Source: Clostridiales bacterium
Lineage (GTDB): Bacteria > Bacillota > Clostridia > Saccharofermentanales > Saccharofermentanaceae
Assembly (NCBI GenBank): GCA_017962145.1
Contig: JAGCVX010000017.1
Coordinates: 1 to 64,000 of the forward strand
DNA: 64,000 nt
Direction of reading: 5' to 3'
Positions within the stretch are counted from its first letter, which is position 1. Every line of letters starts with the position of its first letter. The notes below the pieces were generated by a model, which saw only the letters and a list, made by a program, of their open reading frames with translations, did not search any database and was not told the origin of the DNA. Positions 2,961 through 24,081 of the stretch are shown here, in pieces. A program made the position numbers and the translations under genes.

Positions 2961-2961
2961 G

Positions 2962-3030
2962 TTATAACCTTTTCTTATAGATGATGATACAAAATCGCGA
3001 TTATTAAAAAAACTGTTCACATGTTATAGT
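2962..3030 (+). promoter_or_regulatory. LysR-type operator and promoter A (transsulfuration operon)
   Basis: T-N11-A site TAAC-N5-CTTA at 2965-2977, second block CGATTATT beginning at 2998 (21 bases after the first site) and -10 TATAGT at 3025-3030. The distance from site centre to -10 is 54 bases, the same as at 7415 and 23359. A 7-bp leader hairpin (ATCCGGC 3044-3050 with GCCGGAT 3063-3069) follows without a T-run. The spacing fits a LysR recognition site near -65 with an activation site near -35. Confidence 0.75.
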
Positions 3031-4250: not shown

Positions 4251-4255
4251 GAGAA

Positions 4256-7404: not shown

Positions 7405-7474
7405 GCGATAACGCCAGGTTATCGCAAACGATAAAAGTTAAGCATTATTCAAGGTCGGTTTTCGATGGTATGAT
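7405..7474 (+). promoter_or_regulatory. LysR-type operator and promoter B (organosulfur importer operon)
   Basis: A perfect inverted repeat with arms GCGATAAC (7405-7412) and GTTATCGC (7418-7425) contains the T-N11-A core TAAC-N5-GTTA (7409-7421). The second block GCATTATTCAA starts at 7442 (21 bases on) and -10 TATGAT is at 7469-7474, 54 bases from the core centre. This is the most symmetrical of the four sites and so probably the strongest. Confidence 0.8.
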
Positions 7475-8674: not shown

Positions 8675-9637
8675 ATGAAAAAGAAACTTTTTGCAGTTCT
8701 GAAGTTGCTATTGCCGTTTCTCGCAATAGCAATTTCCGTTCTGATATACTACACCGTCAGCGATAACGGCAAGCAGAAAAAGACAGACCATCCATACTAT
8801 CTGTTCCTGCTCTACGCTATCGGCGCGGTGATCCTAATCGAGATCCTGATCGGAGTTTTCAACATAGATATAAAGAAACGGATCCTTCACAAAGCTCCTT
8901 TTCTGACAGGCGTGATCGTTTTCCTGGCTCTTTTGAATTTTATTACCACGAAGACATTACTGCTTCCGACACTGTACTTTCCTTCGCTGGATCGTATAGT
9001 CGGACTTCTGGTCGAAAGCAGGGTTTTTCTTCTGAAAAATGTGGGAGATTCATTGAAACTTCTGATCACCGGATTTCTCTGGGGCGCAACGGTCGGTTTT
9101 CTGACCGGCCTTGCGCTGGGATACTTTAAGATCGTGGGATACTGGCTCAATCCGATCACGAAGATCATCGGGCCGATCCCGACGACCGCATGGATCCCGC
9201 TGGCGCTGTCCACGTTCCCGACAACACACGGGGCGAACGTATTCCTGATCGCTTTTGCCGTATGGTTCCCGGTCACCCTGATGACCAGTTCCGGTATCCA
9301 GAGCATCAGCAATGTCAACTTCGAAGTGTCGAGAACGCTGGGCGCGTCCACCTTGTACCAGATTGTGCACGTCGCGATCCCGGCCGCGATGCCGAGTATC
9401 TTCCTCGGCGTCTTCTACGGAACGGTATCTTCTTTTGCCACCCTGATGGCAGTGGAGATGAACGGAAATGCCAGCGGAATCGGCTGGTATATCAACTGGC
9501 AGAAATCCGTCATGCTCTATGACGGCGTGTATGCCGGACTGATCATCATCGCCCTGATCTGTTCTCTGTCCCTGACGCTTCTCTTCAAGGTGCGTGACAG
9601 AGTGCTGACCTGGCAGAAAGGAGTCATCAAATGGTAG
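8675..9637 (+). CDS. ssuC: ABC transporter permease (SsuC/TauC type)
   Basis: 320 residues with about seven hydrophobic segments. The EAA loop that contacts the ATPase is visible at about 214-240 (RTLGAS ... HVAIPAAMPSIFLG), the pattern of SsuC/TauC/NrtB permeases. The N-terminal part (1-80) has two or three additional helices, longer than typical SsuC of about 250-260 residues. The gene overlaps the ATPase gene by 7 bases, indicating translational coupling. It forms the membrane channel of the importer. Confidence 0.88.
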   Translation: MKKKLFAVLKLLLPFLAIAISVLIYYTVSDNGKQKKTDHPYYLFLLYAIGAVILIEILIGVFNIDIKKRILHKAPFLTGVIVFLALLNFITTKTLLLPTLYFPSLDRIVGLLVESRVFLLKNVGDSLKLLITGFLWGATVGFLTGLALGYFKIVGYWLNPITKIIGPIPTTAWIPLALSTFPTTHGANVFLIAFAVWFPVTLMTSSGIQSISNVNFEVSRTLGASTLYQIVHVAIPAAMPSIFLGVFYGTVSSFATLMAVEMNGNASGIGWYINWQKSVMLYDGVYAGLIIIALICSLSLTLLFKVRDRVLTWQKGVIKW

Positions 9638-10416
9638 GCGAAATCAGTATCAAAGACGTATACAAGAAATTCCCGAATACCGATCCTTCGAAAGAAGATA
9701 TCGTCGCACTAAACGGGTTTTCTCTGGATATTAAACCGGGTTCCTTCGTTAGTCTCATCGGGCCTTCGGGCTGTGGTAAATCGACGTTGCTGCGTATCAT
9801 CGGAGGACTCGATAAGGCAACGAAAGGGGAGCTTTTCCTCGACGGAAAGGAGATCAGAAAACCCGGATCTGACAGAGGTTTTGCCTTCCAGGGAAGTAAT
9901 CTCTTCCCGTGGCTGACGGTGGAAAAGAATATCGCCTTCGGTCTTAAGGCCAGACACATATATAAAGAGAAGAAAGCATCTGTACAGGAGTATATCAAGC
10001 TCGTCGGTCTGGAAGGATTCGAGAAGTCCTATCCGCATCAGTTGTCGGGAGGCATGCAGCAGAGAGCGTCTCTGGCCAGAGCGCTGGTCGGCCATCCGGA
10101 TGTACTTCTCCTCGATGAGCCGCTCGGCGCGCTCGATGCCTTCACGAGAATGAATCTTCAGGATGAGATCATCGATATCTGGAAGAAACACAATATGACC
10201 ATGGTGATGGTTACTCATGATGTCGATGAAGCGATCTACATGTCCGATCAGGTCGTCGTGATGTCGGCAAGACCTTCCAAGGTAGAAGCGATTATCGATA
10301 TTAAACTTCCGCGTCCGAGGGCGCGTGCCCAGGACACGTTCCAGGAATACAGGACAAAGATCCTGAATGTCCTGAATCTCGGCGGAAAAGTAGATGAAGT
10401 CGAGTACTATCTGTAA
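9631..10416 (+). CDS. ssuB: ABC transporter ATPase (SsuB/TauB type)
   Basis: 261 residues. Walker A GPSGCGKST (44-52), signature LSGGMQQR, Walker B VLLLDEPLGALD and switch VTHDVDEA are all intact, and the C-terminus 'SARPSKVEAIIDIKLPRPR' is typical of the nitrate/sulfonate/taurine ATPases. It drives import through the upstream permease at the inner face of the membrane. Confidence 0.9.
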   Translation: MVGEISIKDVYKKFPNTDPSKEDIVALNGFSLDIKPGSFVSLIGPSGCGKSTLLRIIGGLDKATKGELFLDGKEIRKPGSDRGFAFQGSNLFPWLTVEKNIAFGLKARHIYKEKKASVQEYIKLVGLEGFEKSYPHQLSGGMQQRASLARALVGHPDVLLLDEPLGALDAFTRMNLQDEIIDIWKKHNMTMVMVTHDVDEAIYMSDQVVVMSARPSKVEAIIDIKLPRPRARAQDTFQEYRTKILNVLNLGGKVDEVEYYL

Positions 10417-10472: not shown

Positions 10473-10871
10473 ATGAAAAACAGGATTATCTTTGCAGCCG
10501 TATTCGTCCTTCTCGGACTTCTCGTGATACTTGCACCGACGGTGCTCTTCCCTGTATGCGAAAGCGAGATGAAGATGGCCTGCTTCTTTACGAAGAAAGC
10601 AGAGATCGGTGTCGGTCTTGTGATCGTGGCACTCGGCGTGATCTACTTCTTCCTGAAAAATAAGGACATCCGTCTCGGTATTTCCATCGCACAGTTCCTG
10701 AATGCTGCGCTCGTTCTTGCGCTCCCACTAAAGCTCACGGGCCTTTGCAAGATGAGCGACATGGCCTGCCGCGTAAAGACCTATCCGGCCCTGATCGTGC
10801 TGAGCGTCCTTCTGGCCGTTTCTGCGGCGGCAGATATCTTCCTTCTTGCAAGAAGCGAGAATGAAAAATGA
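10473..10871 (+). CDS. DUF4418-family four-helix membrane protein
   Basis: 132 residues with four predicted transmembrane helices and cysteine pairs between helices (PVCESEMKMACFFT and LCKMSDMACR). This matches the DUF4418 pattern, in which the motif around 'MACFFTKKAEIG' is characteristic. Function unknown; the family usually sits next to FtsX/MacB-like permeases and LolD-like ATPases, as it does here. Its stop overlaps the next start in ATGA. Confidence 0.75.
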   Translation: MKNRIIFAAVFVLLGLLVILAPTVLFPVCESEMKMACFFTKKAEIGVGLVIVALGVIYFFLKNKDIRLGISIAQFLNAALVLALPLKLTGLCKMSDMACRVKTYPALIVLSVLLAVSAAADIFLLARSENEK

Positions 10872-12070
10872 GCCTGAGAAGAACAAAAAACACGATAAAA
10901 GACATCCAGAGACACGCGTTTCTTAACGCGTGCCTTTTGGCAACTGTCGTCATTCTTTCGGTCATGCTTTTCTCCGTGACAGTGATCAGTGTGAGCCTCA
11001 AAAAAGGGATGGGCAATATGCGGAAGCGCCTCGGCGCGGACATCATGCTGGTCCCGAAAGGCGAACGGGAAAAAGCAGAGAATATGCTTTTGGAGGGAAG
11101 CCGCAGTAACTTCTACTTCGAGGGAGAAGTCTATGAAAAAGTGCAGTCGATCGACGGGATCTCGGATTCCACTTCGCAGTGCTTCCTGAAGTCTCTGTCT
11201 GCCGATTGCTGCAGCAGTGAAGTGCAGATCGTCTTTTTCGATCCGGCCAGTGATTTTGTCGTCGGCCCGTGGATCGAGACGGAGTATAAGCAGAAACTCT
11301 CCGGGGACGCGGTCATCGTCGGAAGTGACATCGTCAGTGAAGACGGAATGATCAAGCTCTTCGGGCAGGAATATGCGATCGCATCGCAGATGGCAAGGAC
11401 CGGAACCGCGCTCGACAGATCGGTGTATTTCTCTACCGATGCAAAAGCGGAACTCCTCAGAAATGCCGAAGAGAAAGGATCTTTCTTAACCGAGGAACAG
11501 AAGAAGGGAGATATCCTTTCTTCAATCTTCATCAACGTGGACGGCTCCCACACGGCCGAGCAGATCATCGACTCCGCGCATAAGACGATCGGCGATATCT
11601 TCGATGTCGTCTATCCGAAGAAACTTCACGAATCTTTATCCGGAAGCCTTGGGAAAATCACCGGTGTGGTGAATGCCATCTCGCTGTCTCTCGGGATCCT
11701 TCTGGTCGCGATACTTCTGATCATCAACAGCATCATCATGAAGGGAAGAAAATCGGAGATCGCACTTCTCCGGGTGCTCGGCCACAGAAAGAAAGATCTC
11801 ATCAGAAAGCTTCTTTCCGAGATGGGACTCATCAGCCTTGCAGGCGCGCTAGGCGGAAGTCTCCTTGGCGCCCTGATCGTGATCCCGTTCGGAAGATATA
11901 TCGGAAAGTCCCTGGATATGCCGTATCTCGGTCCGGGGATCGCATCTGTTCTTGTTCAGATCCTGCTGATCGTAGGTATCGTGATCCTGATCGTATTCCT
12001 GGCCTCGGTGTTCTTTATCATACACACGACAAATACTGAGCCGTATCTGGCACTACGGAAGGAGGAGTGA
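10868..12070 (+). CDS. FtsX/MacB-type ABC transporter permease
   Basis: 400 residues. One N-terminal helix (about 19-40), a large extracytoplasmic domain (45-270) and three C-terminal helices (about 275-300, 320-345, 360-385), the FtsX/MacB topology. ATP-binding partner and DUF4418 protein are adjacent and overlapping. Such systems act on lipoproteins, peptides or signalling rather than importing solutes. Several cysteines (SADCCSSEVQ) sit in the external domain. Its role in this sulfur operon is unexplained. Confidence 0.85.
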   Translation: MSLRRTKNTIKDIQRHAFLNACLLATVVILSVMLFSVTVISVSLKKGMGNMRKRLGADIMLVPKGEREKAENMLLEGSRSNFYFEGEVYEKVQSIDGISDSTSQCFLKSLSADCCSSEVQIVFFDPASDFVVGPWIETEYKQKLSGDAVIVGSDIVSEDGMIKLFGQEYAIASQMARTGTALDRSVYFSTDAKAELLRNAEEKGSFLTEEQKKGDILSSIFINVDGSHTAEQIIDSAHKTIGDIFDVVYPKKLHESLSGSLGKITGVVNAISLSLGILLVAILLIINSIIMKGRKSEIALLRVLGHRKKDLIRKLLSEMGLISLAGALGGSLLGALIVIPFGRYIGKSLDMPYLGPGIASVLVQILLIVGIVILIVFLASVFFIIHTTNTEPYLALRKEE

Positions 12071-12074
12071 GTAG

Positions 12075-12722
12075 ATGCTTTGCGCAGAAGGTATAAGTAA
12101 GAGTTACAAATCAAACAGAAGAAAGATCCTGGATTCCCTGGAGATCTCTATCGATGAAGGGGAGTTCATCGCTGTGATGGGCGAATCCGGCTCCGGCAAA
12201 AGCACTCTCCTTGCAGTCTTAGCGGGCATACTCGACCCGGACGAGGGACAAGTGCTTTTCGAGGGGAAGGATCTGTATAAACTTTCGGACGAGGAACTGT
12301 CCGATATCCATAAAAGAAAGATCGGCTATGTGCCGCAGAGTAATTTCTTTCTTAAAAACTATACGATCCTTGAGAATATCGTGGAGCCGTTTCTGGCTGG
12401 TTCGTCCGAAGAGAGAATAGCATACGAAGAGAAGGCGAAGCGGCATCTTGAGAATCTCGGGATCGGTGATCTTGCCGACAGATTTCCCCATGAACTGTCG
12501 GGCGGTGAACTAAAGCGCGCAGCCATCGCCAGGGCGCTTCTTACGGAGCCTGTCCTTCTGATCGCGGATGAACCGACCACCGGACTTGACAGCGGAACGG
12601 GAAGGATCATCCTGGAATACCTTTCGGAATACGTCGTTTCCGGCCATGCGGTATTGGTCGCGACGCACGATGATCATGTGAAGGAGTATGCCGGCCGTGT
12701 TTTTGATATCCAAAAATCGTAA
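12075..12722 (+). CDS. LolD/MacB-type ABC ATPase
   Basis: 215 residues with Walker A GESGSGKS (36-43), signature LSGGELKR, Walker B LLIADEPTTGLD and switch ATHD. The length and the 'YTILENIVEP' region place it with LolD/FtsE/MacB ATPases. It pairs with the FtsX-like permease encoded just upstream. Its stop codon is only a few bases before operator C, so the importer operon ends here. Confidence 0.88.
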   Translation: MLCAEGISKSYKSNRRKILDSLEISIDEGEFIAVMGESGSGKSTLLAVLAGILDPDEGQVLFEGKDLYKLSDEELSDIHKRKIGYVPQSNFFLKNYTILENIVEPFLAGSSEERIAYEEKAKRHLENLGIGDLADRFPHELSGGELKRAAIARALLTEPVLLIADEPTTGLDSGTGRIILEYLSEYVVSGHAVLVATHDDHVKEYAGRVFDIQKS

Positions 12723-12728
12723 TCGGGG

Positions 12729-12800
12729 TTATAAGCGGAAGTTATCACAGACGATAATTACAAACGATTTTTCAAACGCCAAGGTGCGTGATACTATAAT
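12729..12800 (+). promoter_or_regulatory. LysR-type operator and promoter C (cysK and nitrogenase-like cluster)
   Basis: T-N11-A core TAAG-N5-GTTA at 12732-12744 inside GTTATAAG-N5-GTTATCAC. Second block ACGATTTTTCAA with C at 12765 (21 bases after the core) and a consensus -10 TATAAT at 12795-12800, 57 bases from the core centre. Same architecture as promoters A, B and D. It drives the leader peptide, cysK and, by continuous same-strand spacing, the nitrogenase-like genes. Confidence 0.8.
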
Positions 12801-12850
12801 CTCAGCTTGAAGAGAGCGACGAAAAACACTGCAAGCGGGAGGTAAAAAAC

Positions 12851-12931
12851 ATGAAGAATATGATGGATCGAAACGATATGCAGATGTGTGGCATGTGTTG
12901 TATGTGTTCGACATGTTTCATAGAAAAATAA
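12851..12931 (+). CDS. Cys/Met-rich leader peptide, 26 aa (putative attenuation peptide)
   Basis: A 26-codon ORF preceded by GGGAGGT at ideal spacing and located about 50 bases after the -10 of promoter C. It contains 7 Met and 5 Cys, concentrated in the stretch MQMCGMCCMCSTC (residues 10-22), with a tandem Cys pair (codons 16-17, TGT TGT at 12896-12901). That composition is far from chance and matches amino-acid-sensing leader peptides. The stop at 12929-12931 is followed by alternative hairpins and a terminator before cysK. Slow translation at Cys or Met codons is inferred to prevent termination. It could also be a small metal-binding peptide, but the downstream structures favour attenuation. 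Confidence 0.75.
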   Translation: MKNMMDRNDMQMCGMCCMCSTCFIEK

Positions 12932-12950
12932 CACCTGACCGATTGCGGAT

Positions 12951-12999
12951 AACAACTTTAATGTGCGGTTGTTCCCGGGAAGGTAACGACCGATTTTTT
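12951..12999 (+). terminator. Attenuator: antiterminator/terminator pair before cysK
   Basis: Terminator stem CGGTTGTT (12966-12973) with AACGACCG (12985-12992, one U-G pair) followed by six T (12994-12999). The competing antiterminator is AACAAC (12951-12956) with GTTGTT (12968-12973). In addition ACAAC (12952-12956) can pair with GTTGT (12897-12901), which overlaps the tandem Cys codons of the leader peptide. This gives the 1:2, 2:3, 3:4 logic of classical attenuators. The cysK ribosome binding site TAGGAGG follows the T-run. Confidence 0.7.
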
Positions 13000-13019
13000 A
13001 TCTTTAGGAGGAAAATAAA

Positions 13020-13955
13020 ATGAGTGAGATTAAGCAAAGTGCACTGGACCTGATTGGAAATACGCCGATTCTTAAGCTGAATGCGTATGCGAAGAAAAGA
13101 GAAATAACCGAAGCGACCGTCCTGGCGAAGCTCGAGTACCTGAACCCGGCCGGATCCGTAAAGGACAGAATCGCTCTGGCGATGATCGAGGATGCCGAGG
13201 AAAAGGGACTTTTGAAGCCGGGCGCGACGATCATCGAACCTACATCCGGTAACACCGGTATCGGACTTGCGGCTGTGGCTGCAGCCAAGGGCTATAAGGC
13301 CATCCTGACACTCCCGGATACGATGAGTGTCGAGAGAAGAAATCTTCTTCATGCATATGGCGCGGAGCTCGTTCTGACAGAGGGCGCCAAGGGCATGAAG
13401 GGTGCGATCGCCAAGGCGGAAGAACTGAATAAAGAGATCGAAGGCTCGATCATCCTCGGTCAGTTCGTAAACCCGGCGAACCCGAAAGTACATAAGGAAA
13501 CAACAGGACCGGAGATCTGGAAGCAGACCGAAGGTAAGATAGATATATTTGTAGCAGGTGTCGGTACCGGCGGAACCATCACAGGTGTCGGCGAGTACCT
13601 GAAATCCCAGAACCCGGACATCAAGGTTGTCGCAGTCGAACCGGCTACGAGTGCCGTCCTCTCGACAGGTAAGCCGGGAGCCCATAAGATCCAGGGCATC
13701 GGTGCCGGTTTCGTACCGGAAGTCCTGAATACGAAGGTATATGACGAGATCCTCGCGATCGAGAACGAAGATGCATTTGCAGAGGGAAAGGCGTTCGCTA
13801 CTTCGGAAGGTATCCTGGTCGGTATCTCTTCCGGCGCCGCACTGAAGGCAGCCGAGATCCTCGCCAAGAGACCGGAAAACAAGGGTAAAGTGATCGTTGC
13901 ACTTCTTCCTGACTCCGGTGACCGTTATCTCTCTACTCCGCTGTTCAAAGACTGA
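13020..13955 (+). CDS. cysK: Cysteine synthase (O-acetylserine sulfhydrylase)
   Basis: 311 residues of PLP fold type II. The lysine is Lys48 in NPAGSVKDR, with the phosphate/substrate loop EPTSGNTG (73-80), GTGGTITG and the C-terminal SSGAA, all canonical. It converts O-acetylserine plus sulfide to cysteine, using the product of CysE at 5477. It is the first structural gene behind the Cys/Met leader attenuator and 15 bases before the NifB-like gene. Confidence 0.95.
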
Positions 13956-13970
13956 ACAGTGGGATAGCAG

Positions 13971-14843
13971 ATGAGTAACACATACGAGGATCTGCAGCAC
14001 TCCCATCCATGCTTCGGCGGTCATAAGAATAATGCAGGAAGGATCCATCTTCCTGTCAGTCCGGGATGTAATATCGCATGCCGCTTCTGTGACCGCGCCA
14101 TCAACGACGTCGAAGAACGGCCGGGAGTGACATCCAAAGTCCTGAAACCTGCAGAATGTGAAGAGATCCTGCGAAAAGCGCTGGAGATCTGCCCTGACAT
14201 AAAAGTGGCAGGAATCGCAGGACCCGGAGATACGCTGGCATCAGATTATGCACTTGAGACCTTTAAAATCGTAAAAGAAAAGTTCCCACAGTTGATCAAG
14301 TGCATGAGTACGAATGGACTTCTTTTAAACGAAAGAGCCGAAGATGTCATTCGTATCGGGGTAGATTCCCTGACCGTTACAGTGAATGCGGTGGATCCGG
14401 AGATCGAGAATAAGCTGAATGCTTACATCATCTACCACGGTGAGAAGATCGAAGGAGTCGAGGGGGCGAAGATCCTGATCCGAAATCAGCTCGAGGGTAT
14501 ACGGAAAGTGGCCGCCGCAGGGATCACGATCAAGGTCAACACGGTACTGGTACCCGAGATCAACGGAGAGCATATCGAGACGATCGCCAGGACGGTAAAG
14601 GAAGCCGGTGCGAAGATCTACAATATCATTCCCCTGATCCCGCAGCATGAGCTGAAGGATATAAAAGCTCCCACCTGTGCTGAGATCGATGCGGCCAGGA
14701 CGAGAGCAGGAAAGTATATCGATGTCTTCCGGCACTGTCAGCACTGCCGGGCGGATGCGGTAGGTGTTCCGGGGAAGTCCGAATTCGGAGATCAGATCTA
14801 CCAGAGAAGACTCGGAGTAAAGGAGACATTCTCACATGGCTGA
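13971..14843 (+). CDS. NifB-like radical SAM protein (FeS cofactor core synthase)
   Basis: 290 residues. Radical-SAM motif CX3CX2C is C33-NIA-C37-RF-C40; HPC near the N-terminus (Cys14) and RHCQHCRADAVG near the C-terminus (C256, C259) correspond to NifB ligands for the accessory [4Fe-4S] clusters. NifB uses SAM to fuse two [4Fe-4S] clusters with a carbide carbon and a sulfide into the [8Fe-9S-C] precursor. This is the core form without a fused NifX domain; a separate NifX-like gene overlaps it by 8 bases. Presence of all cluster ligands implies that a NifB-co-type cofactor is made. Marker of a nitrogenase-family system. Confidence 0.93.
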   Translation: MSNTYEDLQHSHPCFGGHKNNAGRIHLPVSPGCNIACRFCDRAINDVEERPGVTSKVLKPAECEEILRKALEICPDIKVAGIAGPGDTLASDYALETFKIVKEKFPQLIKCMSTNGLLLNERAEDVIRIGVDSLTVTVNAVDPEIENKLNAYIIYHGEKIEGVEGAKILIRNQLEGIRKVAAAGITIKVNTVLVPEINGEHIETIARTVKEAGAKIYNIIPLIPQHELKDIKAPTCAEIDAARTRAGKYIDVFRHCQHCRADAVGVPGKSEFGDQIYQRRLGVKETFSHG

Positions 14844-15192
14844 TATGAAATACCGGATCGCCGTGGCCAGTTCTGACGGAATCGTGGTGAATAACCACTT
14901 TGGAAAAGCGCGTGCTTTCTATATCTATGACGTGAACGAAGAATCACTGAAACTTCAGGAAGTGAGAAAGCTGCCGCCCGTCTGCGAGATGGGAGACCAC
15001 GATGAAAAAAGGCTCTCGGAAAATGTAGAAAGACTTTCCGATTGCACCCATCTTCTGGCCAGCCGGGTAGGAAACGGTGCCAGGGCGGTACTGGAGAGAA
15101 AAGGGATCAGCGTCTATGAGATCCCGGGGATCATCCCGGAATCGATCGATAAGCTGGTGAAATACGAACAAGTAAATGAATTATTTAAGTGA
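14836..15192 (+). CDS. NifX-like cofactor-carrier protein 1
   Basis: 118 residues of the dinitrogenase iron-molybdenum cofactor biosynthesis (NifX/NafY/NifB-C-terminal) fold: 'IAVASSDGIVVNNHFGKARAFYIYDV' at the start and a 'LLASRVGNGARAVLERKGI' region. Such proteins bind and ferry NifB-co or related clusters. Overlap with the NifB-like gene (as if split from a NifB-NifX fusion) makes a carrier for its product likely. Confidence 0.88.
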   Translation: MADMKYRIAVASSDGIVVNNHFGKARAFYIYDVNEESLKLQEVRKLPPVCEMGDHDEKRLSENVERLSDCTHLLASRVGNGARAVLERKGISVYEIPGIIPESIDKLVKYEQVNELFK

Positions 15193-16056
<864 letters not shown>

Positions 16057-16101
16057 TCAGGAAAATCATTACCCGATCGGGGAATATAGGAGGAAACAAA
16101 A

Positions 16102-17118
16102 ATGGGAAAGATTTACAATTCAATCACAGAACTGGTCGGACATACCCCGATCGTAGAATTCAAAAGACTTGAAGAAAAGCTCGGCCTCAAGGGCCGTATC
16201 GCCGGAAAACTTGAGTACTTCAATCCGGCAGGATCCCACAAGGACAGAATGGCGATCGAGATCATCGAAGCTGCCGAAAAGCGCGGTGAGATCAGCCCGG
16301 ATAAGACCACACTTGTTGAGTTCACATCCGGTAACACAGGTGTCGCGATGGCCGCTTTTGCCGCAGCAAAGGGCTATAAGTTTAAGATCGGTCTTCAGAA
16401 CGGTGTATCCGTAGAAAGACTCAAGCTTCTTCAGGCTTACCAGGCAGAGATCGCAGATGTTCCGCAGGAACTGATCGCAGGCGTTTTTGAAAAGGGTATC
16501 GCTGCTTTTGCCGATGTACTTGAATACATGGAAAAGGGCGTTGAGCATCCGTTCTCCACACGCCAGCTCGATAATCCGGATAACATCAATGCACACTACA
16601 AGCACACAGGTCCGGAGATCTGGGAAGATACCGACGGAAAAGTAGATATCTTTGTCGGCGGTGTCGGCACAGGCGGATCCACACACGGCGTAAGTAAGTT
16701 CCTGAAGGAAAAGAACCCGAACGTAAAAGTAGTTATCACACAGCCGCAGCCGGAAGACGTTGTCAACTCGAAGGTAAAAGGCGCTGAGGACGGAGGTTTC
16801 CACGGTATCCATCAGGTACATAACGACGACGGCCTGACACCGATGGCTCCGACAAACTTCAACGGAGATCTGGCAGATGAATATAACTTCATCTCCTATG
16901 CAGAGACACTGCGTGCGATCCATCTTCTTGCCAAGTACGAAGGTATCTTCGTAGGTGCTTCTGCAGGTGCTTCCCTCGCAGTTGCCATCAAGCTTGCACA
17001 GAAAGAAGAGAATGCAGGAAAACTGATCGTACCGCTTCTGCCGGATAACGGTGAGCGTTACCTGTCCGAGGATCTTCAGAATATCCGTCCGGAACTCGAA
17101 GAAAATCTTGCTTTCTAA
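16102..17118 (+). CDS. Divergent cysteine-synthase-like PLP enzyme inside the nitrogenase-like cluster
   Basis: 338 residues of PLP fold type II, with Lys47 in NPAGSHKDR. The usual loops are altered: EFTSGNTGVAMAAF instead of [23 protein letters not shown] instead of GTGGTITG, and GASAGASL near the end. A true CysK is already encoded at 13020. This copy is embedded between the H and D genes with a strong AGGAGG site. A changed acceptor or nucleophile (for example a thiol, or another beta-replacement) is inferred; activity is unknown. Confidence 0.85.
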   Translation: MGKIYNSITELVGHTPIVEFKRLEEKLGLKGRIAGKLEYFNPAGSHKDRMAIEIIEAAEKRGEISPDKTTLVEFTSGNTGVAMAAFAAAKGYKFKIGLQNGVSVERLKLLQAYQAEIADVPQELIAGVFEKGIAAFADVLEYMEKGVEHPFSTRQLDNPDNINAHYKHTGPEIWEDTDGKVDIFVGGVGTGGSTHGVSKFLKEKNPNVKVVITQPQPEDVVNSKVKGAEDGGFHGIHQVHNDDGLTPMAPTNFNGDLADEYNFISYAETLRAIHLLAKYEGIFVGASAGASLAVAIKLAQKEENAGKLIVPLLPDNGERYLSEDLQNIRPELEENLAF

Positions 17119-17135
17119 GAAAAGGAAATAAACAC

Positions 17136-18602
17136 ATGGCTATTAACTTAAGTAATTCCAATGTCGCGACAAGAGAAAACCGAATCGGTTCCATTACCGG
17201 TTATGTAGGAACTCTAAAGGATCTCGCGACACAGAGTGAGTGCGGAACGCTGAAAGGTTGTTCCCGGTGCTTTTCCCAGTCGAGTACATGTCTTTCGTCC
17301 TGCGGTCTGGGTCAGCTCTCCGCAATCCGTGATGTCGCGGTCATCCACCACGGTCCGGCCGGATGCTCGGTCGCCGCGGCAGGCGCGTACTACATGTCCC
17401 GCGTTATGCCGAAGAAGCGCGGAGTGACCAGTAATACGATCTATGTCGGAACGGACATGAATGAGAATGATACGATCTTCGGATCCACGAATGCGCTCCG
17501 GAACATCATTCTGGAAGTCAATAAGAGATACTCTCCGAAGGCGATCTTCGTATCCTCTTCCTGCGCGACAGGTATCATCGGTGAGGATATCGACAGCATC
17601 GTAGATGAAGTCAGAGACGAAGTCGGTGTTCCGATCGTTGCCGTTAACTGCGAAGGCTTTAAGTCCAGGATCTGGGCGACGGGCTTCGATATCGCGGACC
17701 ATGCGGTGCTTCAGGAGATCGTTAAGCCGCCGAGAGAAGGCATCAAGTCGAATAAGATCAACTTCAAGAACTTCTTCGAGAGTGCGCGTCCGGAGATTAT
17801 CGAGATGTTCAAAAACTTCGATCTCGATCCGGTATTCCTGTACTGTAACTCCACGATCGAAGAACTTTCCCACATCTCGGAGAGCCTCGCGACCACATGT
17901 ATCTGTGGTACTCTCGGAAATTACTTAGGTAATGCACTCGAAGAAAAGTACGGCGTTCCGTATGTCCGATCCATCAACCAGTGCGGTATCGTCGGATTTG
18001 AAGCCTGGCTTCGTGAGATCGGAAGAGTGACCGGAAGATCCGAGCCGATCGAAAAGTATATCCAGGAGCAGCGCGCGATCTATCTCCCGCAGATCGAGGA
18101 GATCAAGAAGCAGCTTCAGGGAAAGACTGCGGTCCTCGGCATGGGTCCGGGCTACACATTCGAAGTCTCCCGTGTTCTTAATGAACTCGGCATCAAGGTC
18201 GTATGGGCGCTCGCATGGCACTACGACAAGAAGTACGAAAACGGCGATGTACCGCCGTCCATGAAGTACCTCCTCGATAACGATATCGACTTTGAGGCAA
18301 GTGTTGCTGACCAGCAGAACTACGAAGTCATGAACATCCTTCACAAGTATCAGCCGGATATGTACCTTTCCCGTCACCCGGGATCCACAGTATGGGCGAT
18401 CAAGAACGGTACACCTGCGATCTATGTGGCTGACGAATACACGATCTTCGGCTATAAGCATACCCTCGAGTTTGCCAAGACGATCCTCGATGCGATCAAT
18501 AACAGATCTTTCGAAGAGAACCTGGCCAAGAGAAGCAAGCTTCCTTACACCGACTGGTGGTACCAGCAGAACGTGGATAAGTTTTTGGAGGAGATCAAGT
18601 AA
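17136..18602 (+). CDS. Nitrogenase-like NifD-family subunit, D1
   Basis: 488 residues. P-cluster-type cysteines are C52 (STCLSSC), C77 (HHGPAGC) and C143 (SSSCATGIIGEDI). Cofactor-type Cys is C257, 12 residues before EEKYGVPY as in NifD Cys275. The NifD His442 region reads AIYVADEYTIFGYK, with no histidine at the aligned place. The nitrogenase segment EGFRGVSQSLGHH is EGFKSRIWATGFD here, so Gln191 and His195 become Trp180 and Phe184. The N-terminus has extra cysteines (C36, C42, C45, C56). It pairs with the K-like protein that starts at the very next base. A non-nitrogen substrate, or a NifE-like scaffold role, is inferred. Confidence 0.92.
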   Translation: MAINLSNSNVATRENRIGSITGYVGTLKDLATQSECGTLKGCSRCFSQSSTCLSSCGLGQLSAIRDVAVIHHGPAGCSVAAAGAYYMSRVMPKKRGVTSNTIYVGTDMNENDTIFGSTNALRNIILEVNKRYSPKAIFVSSSCATGIIGEDIDSIVDEVRDEVGVPIVAVNCEGFKSRIWATGFDIADHAVLQEIVKPPREGIKSNKINFKNFFESARPEIIEMFKNFDLDPVFLYCNSTIEELSHISESLATTCICGTLGNYLGNALEEKYGVPYVRSINQCGIVGFEAWLREIGRVTGRSEPIEKYIQEQRAIYLPQIEEIKKQLQGKTAVLGMGPGYTFEVSRVLNELGIKVVWALAWHYDKKYENGDVPPSMKYLLDNDIDFEASVADQQNYEVMNILHKYQPDMYLSRHPGSTVWAIKNGTPAIYVADEYTIFGYKHTLEFAKTILDAINNRSFEENLAKRSKLPYTDWWYQQNVDKFLEEIK

Positions 18603-19901
18603 ATGGCAAAACTTCTAGACAAGCAAAGATATAAATGCGCGCTGGGCGCGATGCAGACCGTACAGGCGATCGACCGGGCTCTCCCGATCCTGCACAGCGG
18701 CCCGGGCTGCGCGCAGAAACTCTCGGATACCACAGGAAGTTCCGGATACTTTTCTCCGAATATTTTCCCGTGTACCAGTATCAATGAGAAGGACGTGGTT
18801 TTCGGTGGCGTAAAGAAACTCAATTCCACGATCGAGAACGCACTGAAGGTCATCGACGCGGATCTGTACGTAGTCCTTACGGGCTGCATCCCGGAGATCG
18901 TCGGTGATGATTCCGGTGAAGTCGTATCGAGATTTGAAGACGCGGAAAAGCCGGTCGTATATGCACCAACTGCAGGCTTTAAGGGTAACAACTATAAGGG
19001 CCATGAGCAGGTCGTCGACGCAATCATCGACCAGTACCTCAAGAAGTCCGACAAAAAGCAGAAGGGCCTCATAAACATCTGGGCCGACGTTCCGTATCAG
19101 GATCTCTTCTGGCTCGGAAATATCCGTCAGCTCGAGAAGCTTATCGCTGAACTGGGACTTACCCCGAACACGATCTTCGGCTATAAGCGCGGTATCGAAA
19201 ACATCAATAAGATCCCGGAGGCAGAGTTCAATCTTCTCGTTTCTCCGTGGGTGGGCCTGAATAACGTCAAGAAGATGGAGAAGAAGTTCGGGACTCCCTA
19301 TCTTCACTATCCGACACTTCCGATCGGCGCGACCGAAACATCGAAGTTCCTGCGTGAAGTAGGAAAGTTCGCGGGGGTTGCTGAAGAGAAGGTGGAATCC
19401 GTCATCAAGGAACATGAGGATTACTACTATTACCTCATCGGACGCTATGCCGATCTGTTCCTCGAGAACCGTGTCATCAACAAGCAGTTCACTGTGGTTG
19501 CCGATGCGCAGTATGCACTGGGTATCACGAAGTTTCTCGTCAATGACCTCGGTCTTATCCCGGCCAAGCAGTTCGTCGTCGATGATACTCCGAAGAACCA
19601 TCGTGACCGCATCACCGAAGAGTTCAAGAATCTGAACTTCGGTATCGAGGCGGAAGTTTCCTTCGAGACCGACGGATTCAAGATCCATGAAGAGATCAAA
19701 AACCACGATTACCACGGCTATCCGCTGGTGCTCGGCGGGTACTACGAGAAGGAAGTGACGGAAGGCTTAAAGGGCAACTTCCTGAACATTTCCTGGCCGG
19801 TACAGGATAAGGTCGTTTTCGACAGTTTCTATGCCGGATACGAAGGTGCGATACGCCTGATCGAAGATATTTATACAGTGGCCGTATCGAGGTTCAACTG
19901 A
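18603..19901 (+). CDS. Nitrogenase-like NifK-family subunit, K1
   Basis: 432 residues. P-cluster-type cysteines C12 (KCALGAMQ), C36 (HSGPGC) and C95 (LTGCIPEIVGDD) are all kept. The protein lacks the long N-terminal extension of molybdenum NifK, like most nitrogenase-like K proteins. ATG 18603 directly follows the D1 stop, so the subunits are translationally coupled and expected to form an alpha2-beta2 complex. Confidence 0.92.
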   Translation: MAKLLDKQRYKCALGAMQTVQAIDRALPILHSGPGCAQKLSDTTGSSGYFSPNIFPCTSINEKDVVFGGVKKLNSTIENALKVIDADLYVVLTGCIPEIVGDDSGEVVSRFEDAEKPVVYAPTAGFKGNNYKGHEQVVDAIIDQYLKKSDKKQKGLINIWADVPYQDLFWLGNIRQLEKLIAELGLTPNTIFGYKRGIENINKIPEAEFNLLVSPWVGLNNVKKMEKKFGTPYLHYPTLPIGATETSKFLREVGKFAGVAEEKVESVIKEHEDYYYYLIGRYADLFLENRVINKQFTVVADAQYALGITKFLVNDLGLIPAKQFVVDDTPKNHRDRITEEFKNLNFGIEAEVSFETDGFKIHEEIKNHDYHGYPLVLGGYYEKEVTEGLKGNFLNISWPVQDKVVFDSFYAGYEGAIRLIEDIYTVAVSRFN

Positions 19902-19988
19902 GAAATATTGCGTGGGAATGTGCCGGGTAAAGAGGGAAAGTTTCTTAACCCGGCAGATTCTTTAAAAGTAACGAAAGGAGACAGGAAA

Positions 19989-20456
19989 ATGGCATATACC
20001 ATCGCGGTCGCGACATCGGACGGAGTGAATGTGGATCTGAAGTTCGGGCAGGCCGTCAAGTTCTATATCTACCGTGTGGAAGAAAAGGATATCGAACTTG
20101 CCGAGATCCGAGAAGTTCCTGTTTCTTCCGAGGATGCGGGAAAAGCACTTCCCGGCGCGTCTTCCTGCGGATCGGGGGATGAGAACAGCTGCGGCTCCGG
20201 ATGCTCAGGAAACGGGCACGGATGCGGAGGCGGCGGTGAAGTGATCGCGAAGGTCGCCCTGATCGAAGACAGCCGCTGTGTCGTTGCCAAGAAAGTCGGC
20301 TTTCAGGCACAGAAGCAGTTCGAGAAGAAAGCGATCTCCGTATTTGATATCGAAGTCAGTGTGAAAGAAGCACTCGACAAGATCACATCGTATTATTACA
20401 AGATCGATCACCGCCAGTCTCTTCGGGCGGCAGAAGAAAACGAAAGAAGAGGATAA
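19989..20456 (+). CDS. NifX-like protein 2 with Cys/Gly-rich insertion
   Basis: 155 residues. A NifX/NafY fold ('IAVATSDGVNVDLKFGQAVKFYIYRV') is interrupted at about 58-84 by an insertion with five cysteines and a histidine (segments SSCGSGDENSCGSG and GHGCGGGG). The rest of the fold resumes with 'VALIEDSRCVVAKKVG'. Carrier proteins of this fold deliver cofactor to DK-type apo-proteins. The insertion could bind a metal cluster. The frame is open from 19908, but ATG 19989 has AAAGGAGA before it. It lies between the two D/K pairs. Confidence 0.85.
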   Translation: MAYTIAVATSDGVNVDLKFGQAVKFYIYRVEEKDIELAEIREVPVSSEDAGKALPGASSCGSGDENSCGSGCSGNGHGCGGGGEVIAKVALIEDSRCVVAKKVGFQAQKQFEKKAISVFDIEVSVKEALDKITSYYYKIDHRQSLRAAEENERRG

Positions 20457-20523
20457 GTGCTTTTGCCGTGGGAGCGGGGAAAGCCGAATGAGTGAGAGAA
20501 CAGGATAAGGAAGGATCATTGTT

Positions 20524-21981
20524 ATGGCGAAAGTGACGTATTCCGGCGTTCGTGAGAGTAAGCCGGGAAGACTCAATGATTTAGGAACGACCGGACAGAA
20601 GGTCAGCGAAGATTATAAGAAAGGGTGCCTAAAGCGCGCTGACAGATCGTTCGCACAGGGACTCCAGTGCCAGCAGATCAACAGTCTGGCAGCGCTGATG
20701 TCCCTTGAGGACGCGGTATTTATATCACATTCTCCACAAGGATGCGTGGGATGCTCGATCATGGCGGTCGATATGTACCGTGTCGGCCAGATCCACCGTG
20801 GTATCCGGAACGTCAAGAACCCGCACCTGATCGTGTCGAACATCGATCAGAAGAGCGTCGTTTTCGGCGGGGAGAAGAAGCTCCGTGAAGCCGTCGCAAA
20901 GGCTGTCGAGAGATACAGCCCGAAGATCGCTTTCGTCTTTGCTTCCTGCGCATCCGGCATCATCGGCGACGACATCGACGCGATCTGCTCGGATCTTCAG
21001 ACCGAATACCCGGATACACTGATCATCCCGATCCACTGCGAAGGCTTTAAGTCGAAGATCTGCGCATCCGGATTTGACGCGGCCTTCATCGCGATCAACA
21101 AGTATATCCTGAAATCTCAGAAAGTAGAAAAAGAGCCGGGTCTGATCAATCTGTTCGCACCGACGACGGTCAGCTACGCCGACCAGAAAGAGATGGAGAG
21201 GATGATCCAGCTCCTCGGCGCGAAAGTGAACTACATTCCTTTCTACAGTTCTCTCGAAAAGATCAGGAAGATCCCGGCGGCGGAAGCGTCTACCTCGATC
21301 TGTAAAGTATTCGCGGATGAGTTCATGAAGACCCTCTACGAAGAGTACGATATCCCGTACTCGCACACCGTAATGCCGATCGGTATCCGTAATACCGACA
21401 AGTGGTACAGAGGTATCGCGAAGGTCATCGGAAAAGAAAAGGAAGTCGAAGAGATCATCGCGAAAGAACACGAGAGGATCGAACCGCTCGTCAAGAAGAT
21501 CCGTGACCGCCTCCAGGGCAAGCGTGTATTCATCTGCGGCGGTACGGGAAGATCTTTTGCCGCGGCGGCCCTGATCGATGACTTTGGTATGGAGCTCGTC
21601 GGTCTCGAGACACCGACCTACGATGACGATGCGCAAGTCGATATCGAATACTTAAACGGTATCCATAAGGAATTTGTCGTGGATATCGCCAACATGCAGC
21701 CGTTCGAGCAGGTCAACCTCGTCAATAAGCTCAAGCCGGATGCCTTTATCGGTGTACCGGAATGGGCGGCAAAACTCGGTGTTCCGACGACGCATGTTCT
21801 TGATGGAAAGCGCCCGACGATGGGATACGACGGACTTCTGTTCCTCGGCAACAAGATCGCCGACCAGCTCGAGAATCCGGGCTTTAACAAGAAGCTTTCC
21901 GAGCACGTCAAGCTACCGTATAAGGAGTCCTGGTATCAGGAAGATGCGTTTAAATATATCATCCGGGAAGGAGGGAACTGA
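20524..21981 (+). CDS. Nitrogenase-like NifD-family subunit, D2
   Basis: 485 residues. P-cluster-type cysteines are C49 (LQCQQINS), C74 (SHSPQGC) and C142 (ASCASGIIGDDI). Cofactor ligands appear complete: C260, 12 residues before the EEYDIPY segment, and H424 in THVLDGKRPTMGYDG, which aligns without gaps to the NifD MHSWDY...HGFDG stretch containing His442. Gln191 and His195 of nitrogenase are replaced by Cys180 and Phe184 (EGFKSKICASGFD). D2 is thus better equipped than D1 to hold a NifB-derived cofactor, but it is not a canonical nitrogenase. Confidence 0.92.
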   Translation: MAKVTYSGVRESKPGRLNDLGTTGQKVSEDYKKGCLKRADRSFAQGLQCQQINSLAALMSLEDAVFISHSPQGCVGCSIMAVDMYRVGQIHRGIRNVKNPHLIVSNIDQKSVVFGGEKKLREAVAKAVERYSPKIAFVFASCASGIIGDDIDAICSDLQTEYPDTLIIPIHCEGFKSKICASGFDAAFIAINKYILKSQKVEKEPGLINLFAPTTVSYADQKEMERMIQLLGAKVNYIPFYSSLEKIRKIPAAEASTSICKVFADEFMKTLYEEYDIPYSHTVMPIGIRNTDKWYRGIAKVIGKEKEVEEIIAKEHERIEPLVKKIRDRLQGKRVFICGGTGRSFAAAALIDDFGMELVGLETPTYDDDAQVDIEYLNGIHKEFVVDIANMQPFEQVNLVNKLKPDAFIGVPEWAAKLGVPTTHVLDGKRPTMGYDGLLFLGNKIADQLENPGFNKKLSEHVKLPYKESWYQEDAFKYIIREGGN

Positions 21982-21984
21982 CGC

Positions 21985-23274
21985 ATGTCTAATGTAACGG
22001 AATTTCCAAAGGGCGGCTGCGTGCTGGCCGGTATCAATTCAGTATTAGGTGCGATCGACAGAGTCTGCCCGATCTATCACAGCGGCCCCGGCTGCTGCAT
22101 GCAGACAACGGCATCGGATGCGGGGCAGTCCGGACATAAGTCCTCCTGCTTCGTAAGTTCGGTTTCGATTCCTTCCAGCAACATGCTAGAAAAGGAAGTC
22201 GTCTTCGGAGGGACAAACAAGCTTCGTACGACGATCCAGGGTGCCGTCGACATCATTGATGCAGATGCGTATTTCGTTCTGACAGGCTGCACCGCCGGCA
22301 TCATCGGCGACGATATCGCCAGCGTCGCAAACGAATTCTTCGAAAAGGGCATCCCGGTCTATCCGATCGAGACACCCGGTTTTACCGGAGACAGCAACCT
22401 CGGTTACGAGACGGTATGGAATACTTTTCTCGATAAGGTCATCGAGAAAGATGTACCGAAGGACGACAAACTCGTAAACATCTTCGGCATCATCCCGTAC
22501 CACGATCCTTTCTGGAGCGGCACGCTCGAAGAGATCGACCGTATCCTTTCCCGTCTGGGTCTTCGTGTCAACACCTTCTTTACCAAGGGACAGGGCATCG
22601 AGGACGTCAAGAAGAGCTCTGCCGCGGCACTGAATATCATCGTGAATCCATGGCTTTTCAAAGGTCCTGCCGCCAAGTATGAATCCAAGTTCGGTGTGCC
22701 GAGTCTTCGTATCCCGGGACTTTTCGTCGGCGCGACGGATACGAGCAAGTTCGTACGTAGTGTAGGTGAGGCTCTCCATCTGGATAAGGATCTCGTGGAG
22801 AAGGTCATCGCAGACGAAGAGAAATATGTATACAACTACCTCGGTCAGGCAATCGGTGCTCTCAGCTGGAAACGCTTCGCGGTCATCGCGGATGCGAACA
22901 ATGCCGTAGGATTTACCCGATACCTTGCCAATGACTATAGCTTTACACCGGTGCTGGTCATCGTGTCCGAACCGATCTTCCGTCCGGAGGATAAGGAGAC
23001 GATCATCAAAGAGATCTCGGACCTCGAGTATGCCCAGCCACCAAAGATCCTTTTCCTTACGGATCAGTATGAGATCAATCAGGCGATCCGTGAGGAAGAA
23101 GAGGAGATCACGCTTCTGGTCGGATCCAGTAATGATCGTGAGATCGCGCTGGAAAAAGACATCCAGTTCATCCTGGGCGCGTTCCCGATGAGCGAGCGCC
23201 TGATCTTCAACCGTACTTATGCTGGTTATCGTGGTAGTCTGACGTTTACGGAAGACATCTACGACAACAACTGA
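21985..23274 (+). CDS. Nitrogenase-like NifK-family subunit, K2
   Basis: 429 residues. P-cluster-type cysteines are C12 (GGCVLAG), C37 (HSGPGCC, doubled) and C102 (LTGCTAGIIGDD). The gene starts 3 bases after D2 with AAGGAGG in the D2 tail. It ends the nitrogenase-like operon and is followed by a strong terminator. It is paralogous to K1, consistent with an ancient or imported duplication of the whole DK pair. Confidence 0.92.
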   Translation: MSNVTEFPKGGCVLAGINSVLGAIDRVCPIYHSGPGCCMQTTASDAGQSGHKSSCFVSSVSIPSSNMLEKEVVFGGTNKLRTTIQGAVDIIDADAYFVLTGCTAGIIGDDIASVANEFFEKGIPVYPIETPGFTGDSNLGYETVWNTFLDKVIEKDVPKDDKLVNIFGIIPYHDPFWSGTLEEIDRILSRLGLRVNTFFTKGQGIEDVKKSSAAALNIIVNPWLFKGPAAKYESKFGVPSLRIPGLFVGATDTSKFVRSVGEALHLDKDLVEKVIADEEKYVYNYLGQAIGALSWKRFAVIADANNAVGFTRYLANDYSFTPVLVIVSEPIFRPEDKETIIKEISDLEYAQPPKILFLTDQYEINQAIREEEEEITLLVGSSNDREIALEKDIQFILGAFPMSERLIFNRTYAGYRGSLTFTEDIYDNN

Positions 23275-23309
23275 CGGAACGATCCATCCGTCGGATAATC
23301 TCACTCTGG

Positions 23310-23340
23310 AAAGGGCTGCCGGAAGGCGGCCCTTTCTGTT
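23310..23340 (+). terminator. Rho-independent terminator of the nitrogenase-like operon
   Basis: Eleven-pair hairpin: AAAGGGCTGCC (23310-23320), loop GGAA, GGCGGCCCTTT (23325-23335, one G-U pair), then CTGTTT. It separates the cluster from promoter D. Confidence 0.88.
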
Positions 23341-24077: not shown

Positions 24078-24081
24078 ACAT

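What the first reader, a model, noticed from the sequence alone, without database searches (positions are those of the whole stretch)
12729..23340. Nitrogenase-like system embedded in a sulfur-assimilation regulon
The order cysK, nifB-like, nifX-like, nifH-like, divergent cysK, D1, K1, nifX-like, D2, K2 lies between sulfur genes and behind a sulfur-type promoter. Established: nitrogenase-family reductases other than nitrogenase exist, including methylthio-alkane reductase for sulfur acquisition in phototrophs. Inferred: this clostridial system reductively liberates sulfide or thiol from organosulfur compounds imported by the SsuABC-like transporter. The two DK pairs with one H gene and two cysteine synthase paralogues are not an arrangement I recognise from a characterised system.
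Basis: partly seen in the sequence, partly recalled or inferred. Interest (0 to 1): 0.95.

Follow-up and report, generated by a model that had tools for sequence, protein, structure and literature searches.

The report
Twin nitrogenase-like sulfur-scavenging operon
A bacterium related to rumen Clostridia carries, among cysteine genes, two enzymes of the nitrogenase family that share one nitrogenase-type iron protein and likely break carbon-sulfur bonds to feed cysteine synthesis rather than fix nitrogen, which would reassign nifH genes now read as signs of nitrogen fixation in the gut.

Summary
The ten-gene order is real, all on the + strand: two D-K pairs, one NifH, one NifB, two NifX, two CysK-type enzymes. 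It recurs: 189 candidate loci encode a D2 relative, and 16 of the 80 returned hold the order, nearly all rumen or gut anaerobes. D1 and D2 lie outside the NifD/NifE clade (100/100). D1 keeps every cofactor ligand of methylthio-alkane reductase (Mar), including the Arg-His hallmark, but lacks its His194 and is a separate clade. D2 lost the Mar loop and has an invariant His424 that aligns with NifD His442 in two of three alignments. Three new observations support the sulfur link: one operator precedes the metC, ssuA and nif-like units; a Cys-codon leader peptide plus terminator sits before cysK; sulfite reductase is found in 1 of 115 family genomes and in none with D1, which argues for sulfide or thiol, not sulfite, as product. 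Substrate, activity and D2K2's role (second reductase or cofactor carrier) are unproven. The NifH appears to be the kind that a gut survey read as a nitrogen-fixation marker. Verdict: new variant of a known kind, worth testing.

The parts
2961..2978 (-). operator copy before the metC-patB-cysE-lysR unit
   Evidence: 1 mismatch to ATAASN5GTTATCNC
3096..4250 (+). cystathionine gamma-lyase/synthase family PLP enzyme
   Evidence: below equivalog cut-offs
4247..5458 (+). PatB-family C-S lyase
   Evidence: TIGR04350 428 bits, cut-off 340
5477..6418 (+). CysE-like serine O-acetyltransferase
   Evidence: TIGR01172 163.6 bits, cut-off 210.65
6456..7358 (+). LysR-type regulator
7405..7425 (.). operator before ssuA, matches on both strands
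7576..8655 (+). SsuA-like substrate-binding protein
   Evidence: TIGR01728 84.5 bits, below cut-off
8675..9637 (+). ABC permease (SsuC-like; label from position, not from an HMM call)
9631..10416 (+). ABC ATPase (SsuB-like; label from position, not from an HMM call)
10473..12722 (+). DUF4418 + FtsX permease + ABC ATPase (LolD-like), recurring upstream neighbours
12731..12748 (+). operator before the nif-like operon
   Evidence: kept before cysK1 in 10 related loci
12771..12800 (+). promoter-like TTCAAA-18-TATAAT
   Evidence: 10 of 12 matches, (a consensus match only; shuffles give as many sites)
12851..12931 (+). 26-aa leader peptide with 5 Cys, all TGT codons
12966..12999 (+). terminator-like hairpin and T run between leader and cysK1
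13020..13955 (+). cysK, cysteine synthase A
   Evidence: TIGR01139 451 bits, cut-off 351
13971..14843 (+). NifB radical-SAM protein without NifX domain
   Evidence: TIGR01290 257 bits (cut-off 343.65, full-length model with NifX domain); 291 bits to solved NifB 7bi7/7jmb
14836..15192 (+). NifX-like
   Evidence: PF02579
15208..16056 (+). NifH, reductase
   Evidence: TIGR01287 464 bits, cut-off 394; 1cp2 481 bits
16102..17118 (+). second CysK-like PLP enzyme
   Evidence: TIGR01136 273 bits, cut-off 344
17136..18602 (+). D1: P-cluster C52, C77, C143; cofactor C257 and R413-H414; H362; I179 in place of Mar His194
18603..19901 (+). K1: P-cluster C12, C36, C95
   Evidence: MarK 370 bits; 54 of 54 related rows; own residues
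19989..20456 (+). NifX-like with Gly/Cys-rich insert
20524..21981 (+). D2: P-cluster C49, C74, C142; cofactor C260; Mar loop deleted; invariant H424
21985..23274 (+). K2: P-cluster C12, C37, C102
   Evidence: MarK 241 bits; 72 of 72 related rows; own residues
23352..23369 (+). operator before the HD-like/LanC-like unit (23478-25464)

Best explanation
The operon at 13020-23274 encodes two nitrogenase-family reductases, D1K1 and D2K2, with one NifH and one NifB, and likely scavenges sulfur by ATP-driven reductive C-S bond cleavage that would release sulfide (or a thiol) for the two cysteine synthases. Shown by calls: gene content, clade positions, ligand residues, operator copies, leader peptide and terminator, and lack of sulfite reductase in the family genomes with D1. 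Inferred: (1) when cysteine runs short, ribosomes stall on the TGT codons of the leader, the terminator fails to form and the operon is read, under a LysR-type regulator; (2) an SsuABC-like importer brings in an organosulfur compound; (3) NifB builds an [Fe8S9C] cluster, which the two NifX proteins may carry; (4) NifH passes electrons to D1K1, whose cluster is held Mar-style by Cys257 and His414; (5) D2K2, whose cluster would be held by Cys260 and His424, is more likely a second reductase of different specificity than a cofactor carrier; (6) CysE and CysK turn the sulfide into cysteine.
For: D1 is closest to MarD among solved proteins (293.6 bits against 128.9 for NifD) and K1 to MarK (370). 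All 50 distinct D1 sequences (51 rows) keep C66, C91, C158, C270, H375, R428 and H429 in Mar numbering; PMC12552129 (passages) says Arg428-His429 might be a Mar hallmark. Operator in the window only before the metC, ssuA, cysK1 and HD-like units; in 149 related loci (1.85 Mb) 17 sites: 10 before cysK1, 2 before D2, 2 before HD/LanC-like genes, 3 elsewhere. Cys-codon leader (4 Cys or more) in 13 of 29 cysK1 upstream regions, the window included, 11 of 27 after removing two duplicate contigs. Terminator stem 96.6% of cells paired, 3 of 11 pairs with changes on both sides. PF01077 in 1 of 115 family genomes, none of the 22 with D1. Related D3-type loci carry a MetY-like enzyme (L098, L101, L133) and a MetQ-type binding protein (L098, L101), so the acceptor enzyme seems to follow the product: cysteine here, methionine there. 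In the family, D1 (22 genomes) and the 38-40% identical D3-type D (26 genomes) never share a genome.
Against: No activity, substrate or expression data. Mar His194, near the substrate site, is Ile in all D1 sequences, so the substrate must differ. The leader RNA as a whole folds no better than shuffles (z 0.18), the antiterminator shows no covariation, and 16 of 29 regions lack a leader with 4 Cys. SsuA lies near D2 in only 8 of 31 loci of 20 kb or more. D1 and a D3-type set do occur together in Ruminiclostridium hungatei (L140, L133), so they are not strict alternatives. D2K2's role is open: three genomes of 99-100% completeness keep D1K1 without D2K2 (G061, G065, G066). His424 falls two positions off His442 in one of three alignments.
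Confidence: 0.52

Rival explanations
1. D2K2 is a dedicated cofactor carrier/maturase for D1K1, a NifEN-like scaffold that evolved separately inside the Mar branch; only D1K1 catalyses.
For: Gene order D1-K1-NifX-D2-K2 recalls DK-EN-X. D2 lost the Mar His loop (80 of 80) and has Thr at the Mar H375 site, as the NifE rows do. In 115 family genomes D1 occurs in 22, D2 in 19, both in 17; D2 without D1 in 2 incomplete genomes (73% and 84%). Dos Santos 2012 suggested scaffolding for four linked genes with Sgly tags (PMC3464626, passages).
Against: Invariant His424 sits on the NifD His442 column in two of three alignments, whereas NifEN holds its cluster by Cys and a weak Gln (PMC13031127, passages). 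A lone D2K2 has its own operator in L020 and L021. In 28 loci with D2 but no D1 nearby, SsuA-like genes lie within 6.5 kb in 8, SsuC-like in 9, SsuB-like or other ABC ATPases in 12. Five genomes have D1 and no D2, two of them perhaps through contig ends. PMC12552129 (passages) takes operons of non-nitrogenase relatives to hold one DK pair only. P-cluster cysteines do not discriminate: NifE and one NifN keep them too.
Confidence: 0.3
2. An unusual nitrogenase: D1K1 and/or D2K2 fix N2 with the L-cluster, and the sulfur genes serve Fe-S supply.
For: True NifH and NifB. L-cluster NifEN and NifDK can reduce N2 (PMC11168457, abstract). Endomicrobium proavitum fixes N2 with a NifD lacking the His (as told in PMC4995403 section 8); its sequence was not compared here.
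Against: D1 and D2 score 141 and 148 bits on nifD against a cut-off of 653.55 and lie outside NifD/NifE. A CysK-like gene lies between H and D, where clostridial nif clusters carry nifI (recalled). Cysteine leader and sulfur operator. No NifDKEN in the genome (6 PF00148 hits; genome 85% complete).
Confidence: 0.08
3. A sulfonate reductase like Isr that releases sulfite from isethionate or a similar sulfonate.
For: SsuABC-like transporter next to NifB-H-D-K, as in Rhodobacter capsulatus (PMC11423573: abstract, introduction, first parts of results and discussion).
Against: No sulfite reductase in the family genomes with D1. IsrD keeps one P-cluster Cys and lacks Cys275; D1 and D2 keep all.
Confidence: 0.06

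Closest known systems
Methylthio-alkane reductase MarBHDK (Rhodospirillum rubrum)
   Different: Separate clades; His194 is Ile; NifH-type instead of MarH-type reductase; two DK pairs; CysK/CysE and a cysteine leader. The genome of Ruminiclostridium hungatei holds both a true MarDK orthologue (L134) and D1K1/D2K2 (L140).
Isethionate reductase IsrBHDK (Rhodobacter capsulatus)
   Same: Radical-SAM B protein, H, D, K near a sulfonate-type transporter; proposed reductive C-S cleavage.
   Different: IsrD has one P-cluster Cys and no Cys275; product is sulfite.
NifEN maturase
   Same: Second DK-like pair plus NifX in one operon; D2 lacks the Mar His loop.
   Different: D2 with NifE as one clade is rejected (p-AU 1.5e-37); D2 has His424.
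Nitrogenase-like groups near cysteine synthase (Dos Santos 2012, PMC3464626)
   Same: Nitrogenase-like D with Cys275, cysteine synthase or OAH sulfhydrylase nearby; four linked genes noted.
   Different: No ligand, operator, leader or D1/D2 analysis in the passages that I read.
Cysteine leader peptides of mycobacterial cys operons (PMC1262725)
   Same: Short ORF with runs of Cys codons before cys genes.
   Different: Those lack clear terminators (passages); here a hairpin with T run follows.

Membership tests
Methylthio-alkane reductase (Mar) | D inside the clade of R. rubrum MarD | tested here: not met
   MarD and L134 form their own clade 100/100 without D1 or D2; D1 as sister of Mar is not rejected (p-AU 0.09)
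Methylthio-alkane reductase (Mar) | Six P-cluster Cys and Cys270 | tested here: met
   D1 50 of 50 distinct, D2 80 of 80; K1 54/54, K2 72/72
Methylthio-alkane reductase (Mar) | Arg428-His429 loop (D1) | tested here: met
   D1 50 of 50 distinct
Methylthio-alkane reductase (Mar) | Arg428-His429 loop (D2) | tested here: not met
   D2 0 of 80
Methylthio-alkane reductase (Mar) | His194 near the substrate site | tested here: not met
   Ile in all D1, Ile or Val in all D2
Methylthio-alkane reductase (Mar) | Releases methanethiol from methylthio-alkanes | not testable with these tools
   needs enzyme assay
Mo-nitrogenase | NifD equivalog score | tested here: not met
   TIGR01282 141 (D1) and 148 (D2) against 653.55
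Mo-nitrogenase | NifH equivalog score | tested here: met
   TIGR01287 464 against 394
Mo-nitrogenase | NifDKEN in the genome | tested here: not met
   6 PF00148 hits: these four plus a distant pair on C24; genome 85% complete
Mo-nitrogenase | NifV/homocitrate synthase | not tested
   search not answered
NifEN | D2 in the NifE clade | tested here: not met
   rejected, p-AU 1.5e-37
NifEN | No strong His at the second cluster end | tested here: inconclusive
   His424 on the His442 column, two positions off
Isethionate reductase (Isr) | Single P-cluster Cys in D, no Cys275 | tested here: not met
   against PMC11423573
Cysteine leader-peptide attenuator | Leader ORF with Cys codons, then terminator | tested here: met
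Cysteine leader-peptide attenuator | Alternative antiterminator | tested here: inconclusive
   93.8% of cells pair, no covariation
Cysteine leader-peptide attenuator | Response to cysteine | not testable with these tools
   needs reporter assay

The most novel reading that the evidence does not exclude
One operon runs two reductases whose [Fe8S9C] clusters are anchored in two different ways: D1K1 by the Mar loop, D2K2 by a nitrogenase-style His that arose within the Mar branch. D2K2 is then a new class of the nitrogenase superfamily, and the gut and rumen Lachnospiraceae-type nifH taken as a marker of nitrogen fixation belongs to a sulfur-scavenging system.
Probability: 0.35. Interest if true: 0.9.

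Novelty: new variant of a known kind. Interest (0 to 1): 0.76.

Why it matters
Nitrogenase-family enzymes that cut C-S bonds are few: Mar, and Isr by genetics. This would add one found across rumen and gut anaerobes, with a second DK pair whose His position bears on how the nitrogenase cofactor site evolved; PMC13031127 (passages) argues that the His ligands arose independently in nitrogenase and Mar, and PMC12552129 (section 12) could not place an ancestral His. It also bears on gut nitrogen fixation: Igai et al. 2016 (PMC4995403, section 8 and passages) named Clostridiales with Cluster III nifH as candidate nitrogen fixers; their OTU-08 is 98% identical to Lachnospira multipara and 97% to Butyrivibrio NifH. 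In 24 of 30 genomes that I searched, eight of them from records named Butyrivibrio, the NifH of this system (89% identity or more) is present, in 23 on the same contig and within 6 kb of D1. I did not compare the OTU sequences themselves.

Tried and rejected
Scaffold as the only reading of D2K2: I held it until His424 appeared, then made it a rival. P-cluster cysteines as a test of catalysis: dropped, because NifE and one NifN (L151) keep them. Whole-leader RNA folding: no signal (z 0.18). Rfam: no match in the window at gathering scores. A resampling test of Cys-rich ORFs used a threshold (7 Cys) above the leader's 5, so it says nothing; at 5 Cys the window has a second short Cys-rich ORF at 37-99, not followed up. 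SsuA against solved structures: only weak THI5-type and other binders. AU test of D1+NifD did not finish. A first operator pattern with fixed G gave only 4 sites in relatives, all before cysK1; the wider one is the one reported. Paper searches for a description of this operon found none in their listings (5.39 million open papers; subscription papers such as North et al. 2020 were not seen).

Rows dropped: of 189 loci only the best 80 were returned. The tree used 48 chosen rows. The 30 genomes were picked from the 80 loci, mostly those with D2 but no D1 nearby, so they are not a random sample; no dedicated NifD search was run on them. The operator scan of relatives left out the window's own loci (7) and three loci on contigs already held. 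The D3-type label rests on identity; four of those 26 genomes were opened (L098-L101).
Full report
What is there. Ten genes on the + strand from 13020 to 23274: cysK, nifB, nifX, nifH, a second CysK-like PLP enzyme, D1, K1, a NifX with a Gly/Cys-rich insert, D2, K2. Upstream lie a metC/CGS-family gene, patB, a cysE-like gene, a LysR gene, an SsuABC-like transporter and a DUF4418-FtsX-ABC cassette; downstream a gene that I call HD-like from its motif (recalled; no Pfam match) and a LanC-like gene. The own genome (2.54 Mb, 85% complete) has six PF00148 hits: these four and a distant pair on contig C24, and two NifH-like genes, this one and one at 49% identity beside that pair.

How widespread. 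189 candidate loci in a genome collection encode D2 relatives; the best 80, with 82-97% identity, were returned: rumen and gut Clostridia, Butyrivibrio, Eubacterium, Ruminococcus, Treponema, Ruminiclostridium hungatei. Nine genes keep their order in 16 of the 80, 14 of them with a CysK-like gene in the slot before D1; elsewhere D2K2 is split off, or separated from D1K1 by ssuABC and cysE, or the contig ends. In 115 genomes of the window's family I count D1 orthologues (89% identity or more) in 22, D2 in 19 and both in 17. D1 without D2 occurs in five (G061, G065, G066, G097, G111); in the first three (99-100% complete) the D1-K1-NifX run is intact and is followed by other genes, while in G097 and G111 the contig ends soon behind K1. 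D2 without D1 occurs in two incomplete genomes. In 30 genomes picked from the 80 loci, mostly for lacking D1 beside D2, 25 have D1 (24 full-length and one fragment).

Active sites. With Mar numbering checked residue by residue, all 50 distinct D1 sequences keep C66, C91, C158, C270, H375, R428 and H429, and all have Ile for H194. 80 of 80 D2 sequences keep the four Cys but lack R428-H429 and H375. PMC12552129 (passages and section 12) names Cys270 and His429 as the [Fe8S9C] ligands of Mar and says that Arg428-His429 might be its hallmark. D2 has an invariant His424 (80 of 80). In the 160-row alignment and in a profile-profile alignment it falls on the NifD His442 column, with an ungapped H..D...P..G match; in the 48-row alignment it lies two positions off. 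If the first is right, one operon holds both known ways of anchoring the cluster by His. NifEN uses Cys and a weak Gln instead (PMC13031127, passages). K1 54/54 and K2 72/72 related rows keep their three P-cluster Cys, but so do NifE and one clostridial NifN, so this does not separate enzyme from carrier.

Regulation. Operator ATAASN5GTTATCNC with up to one mismatch occurs at four places in the window, before metC, ssuA, cysK1 and the HD-like gene (five matches, one place on both strands; mean 0.44 in shuffles, 0 of 100 reach five; pattern refined on these sites). In 149 related loci (1.85 Mb) a slightly wider pattern gives 17 sites: 10 before cysK1, 2 before a D2K2 without D1 nearby, 2 before HD- or LanC-like genes, 3 elsewhere; these loci were all fetched around D or K genes, so they favour such sites. 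Between promoter and cysK1 lies a leader ORF, MKNMMDRNDMQMCGMCCMCSTCFIEK, with a Shine-Dalgarno-like stretch and then a hairpin with a T run. Leaders with four or more Cys precede cysK1 in 13 of 29 regions, 11 of 27 after removing duplicate contigs. The terminator stem pairs in 96.6% of cells, with 3 of 11 pairs changed on both sides (26 of 500 and 70 of 500 shuffles reach these). The antiterminator is not supported by covariation, nor does the whole leader fold better than shuffles. Cysteine leaders are known in Actinobacteria (PMC1262725, passages).

Product. Sulfite reductase (PF01077) is found in 1 of 115 family genomes, G024, which has no D match; the same search rings in 11 of 14 control genomes. 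A sulfite-releasing enzyme such as Isr (PMC11423573) would therefore be of little use here. Related D3-type loci carry a MetY-like enzyme (TIGR01326 the best model, 405-488 bits, under the cut-off of 495) in three loci and a MetQ-type binding protein in two, whereas D1 operons carry CysK-type enzymes. In the family, D1 (22 genomes) and D3-type D (26 genomes) never co-occur; outside it, R. hungatei holds both (L140, L133).

Nitrogen-fixation markers. In the 30 genomes, 24 hold a NifH with 89% identity or more, 23 of them on the same contig and within 6 kb of D1. With a D1 query at E 1e-12, R. hungatei alone showed a hit that the tree places with NifD; further hits in other genomes that I opened are D4 or D5 types. 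Igai et al. (PMC4995403, section 8) treat closely similar gut Cluster III nifH as a sign of candidate nitrogen fixers and note that some relatives lack the NifD His and others keep it. D1 and D2 would give that pattern; this is inference, as I did not compare their sequences.

Limits. No expression, substrate or activity data; D2K2's role is open; the operator pattern is post hoc; the genome is incomplete; the nifV search did not complete.

Noticed in passing
L102 6214-12682 (G000 contig C24): A second nitrogenase-like H-D-K set with an ABC transporter (ATPase, permease, binding protein; labels from my reading, no HMM call), like the NifH/NifEN-like genes near ABC transporters noted by Dos Santos 2012.
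   Followed up: partly
L134 7651-10577: A true MarDK orthologue (MarD 71% identity) in the genome of Ruminiclostridium hungatei, which also holds D1K1/D2K2 (L140), a canonical nif cluster (L157) and several further nitrogenase-like pairs.
   Followed up: partly
L098-L101 and L133: D3-type systems with D, K, H and NifB (fused to an N-terminal NifX domain in L098); MetQ-type importer seen in L098 and L101, MetY-like enzyme in L098, L101 and L133.
   Followed up: partly
L138, L139, L141: K-D ordered pairs whose D keeps the Mar His but not the Arg; by score nearer to D2 than to D1 or Mar, though the tree does not join them firmly.
   Followed up: no
window 19989-20456: NifX with a Gly/Cys-rich insert; 52 distinct sequences, the window's included, carry 3 to 11 Cys. 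Possible metal or cluster binding.
   Followed up: partly
window 16102-17118: The slot between nifH and D1 holds one of two different CysK-like enzymes in different lineages.
   Followed up: no
window 23478-25464: HD-like and LanC-like genes behind a copy of the sulfur operator; function unknown; the HD-like gene also lies near a D3 locus (L098, 86% identity).
   Followed up: no
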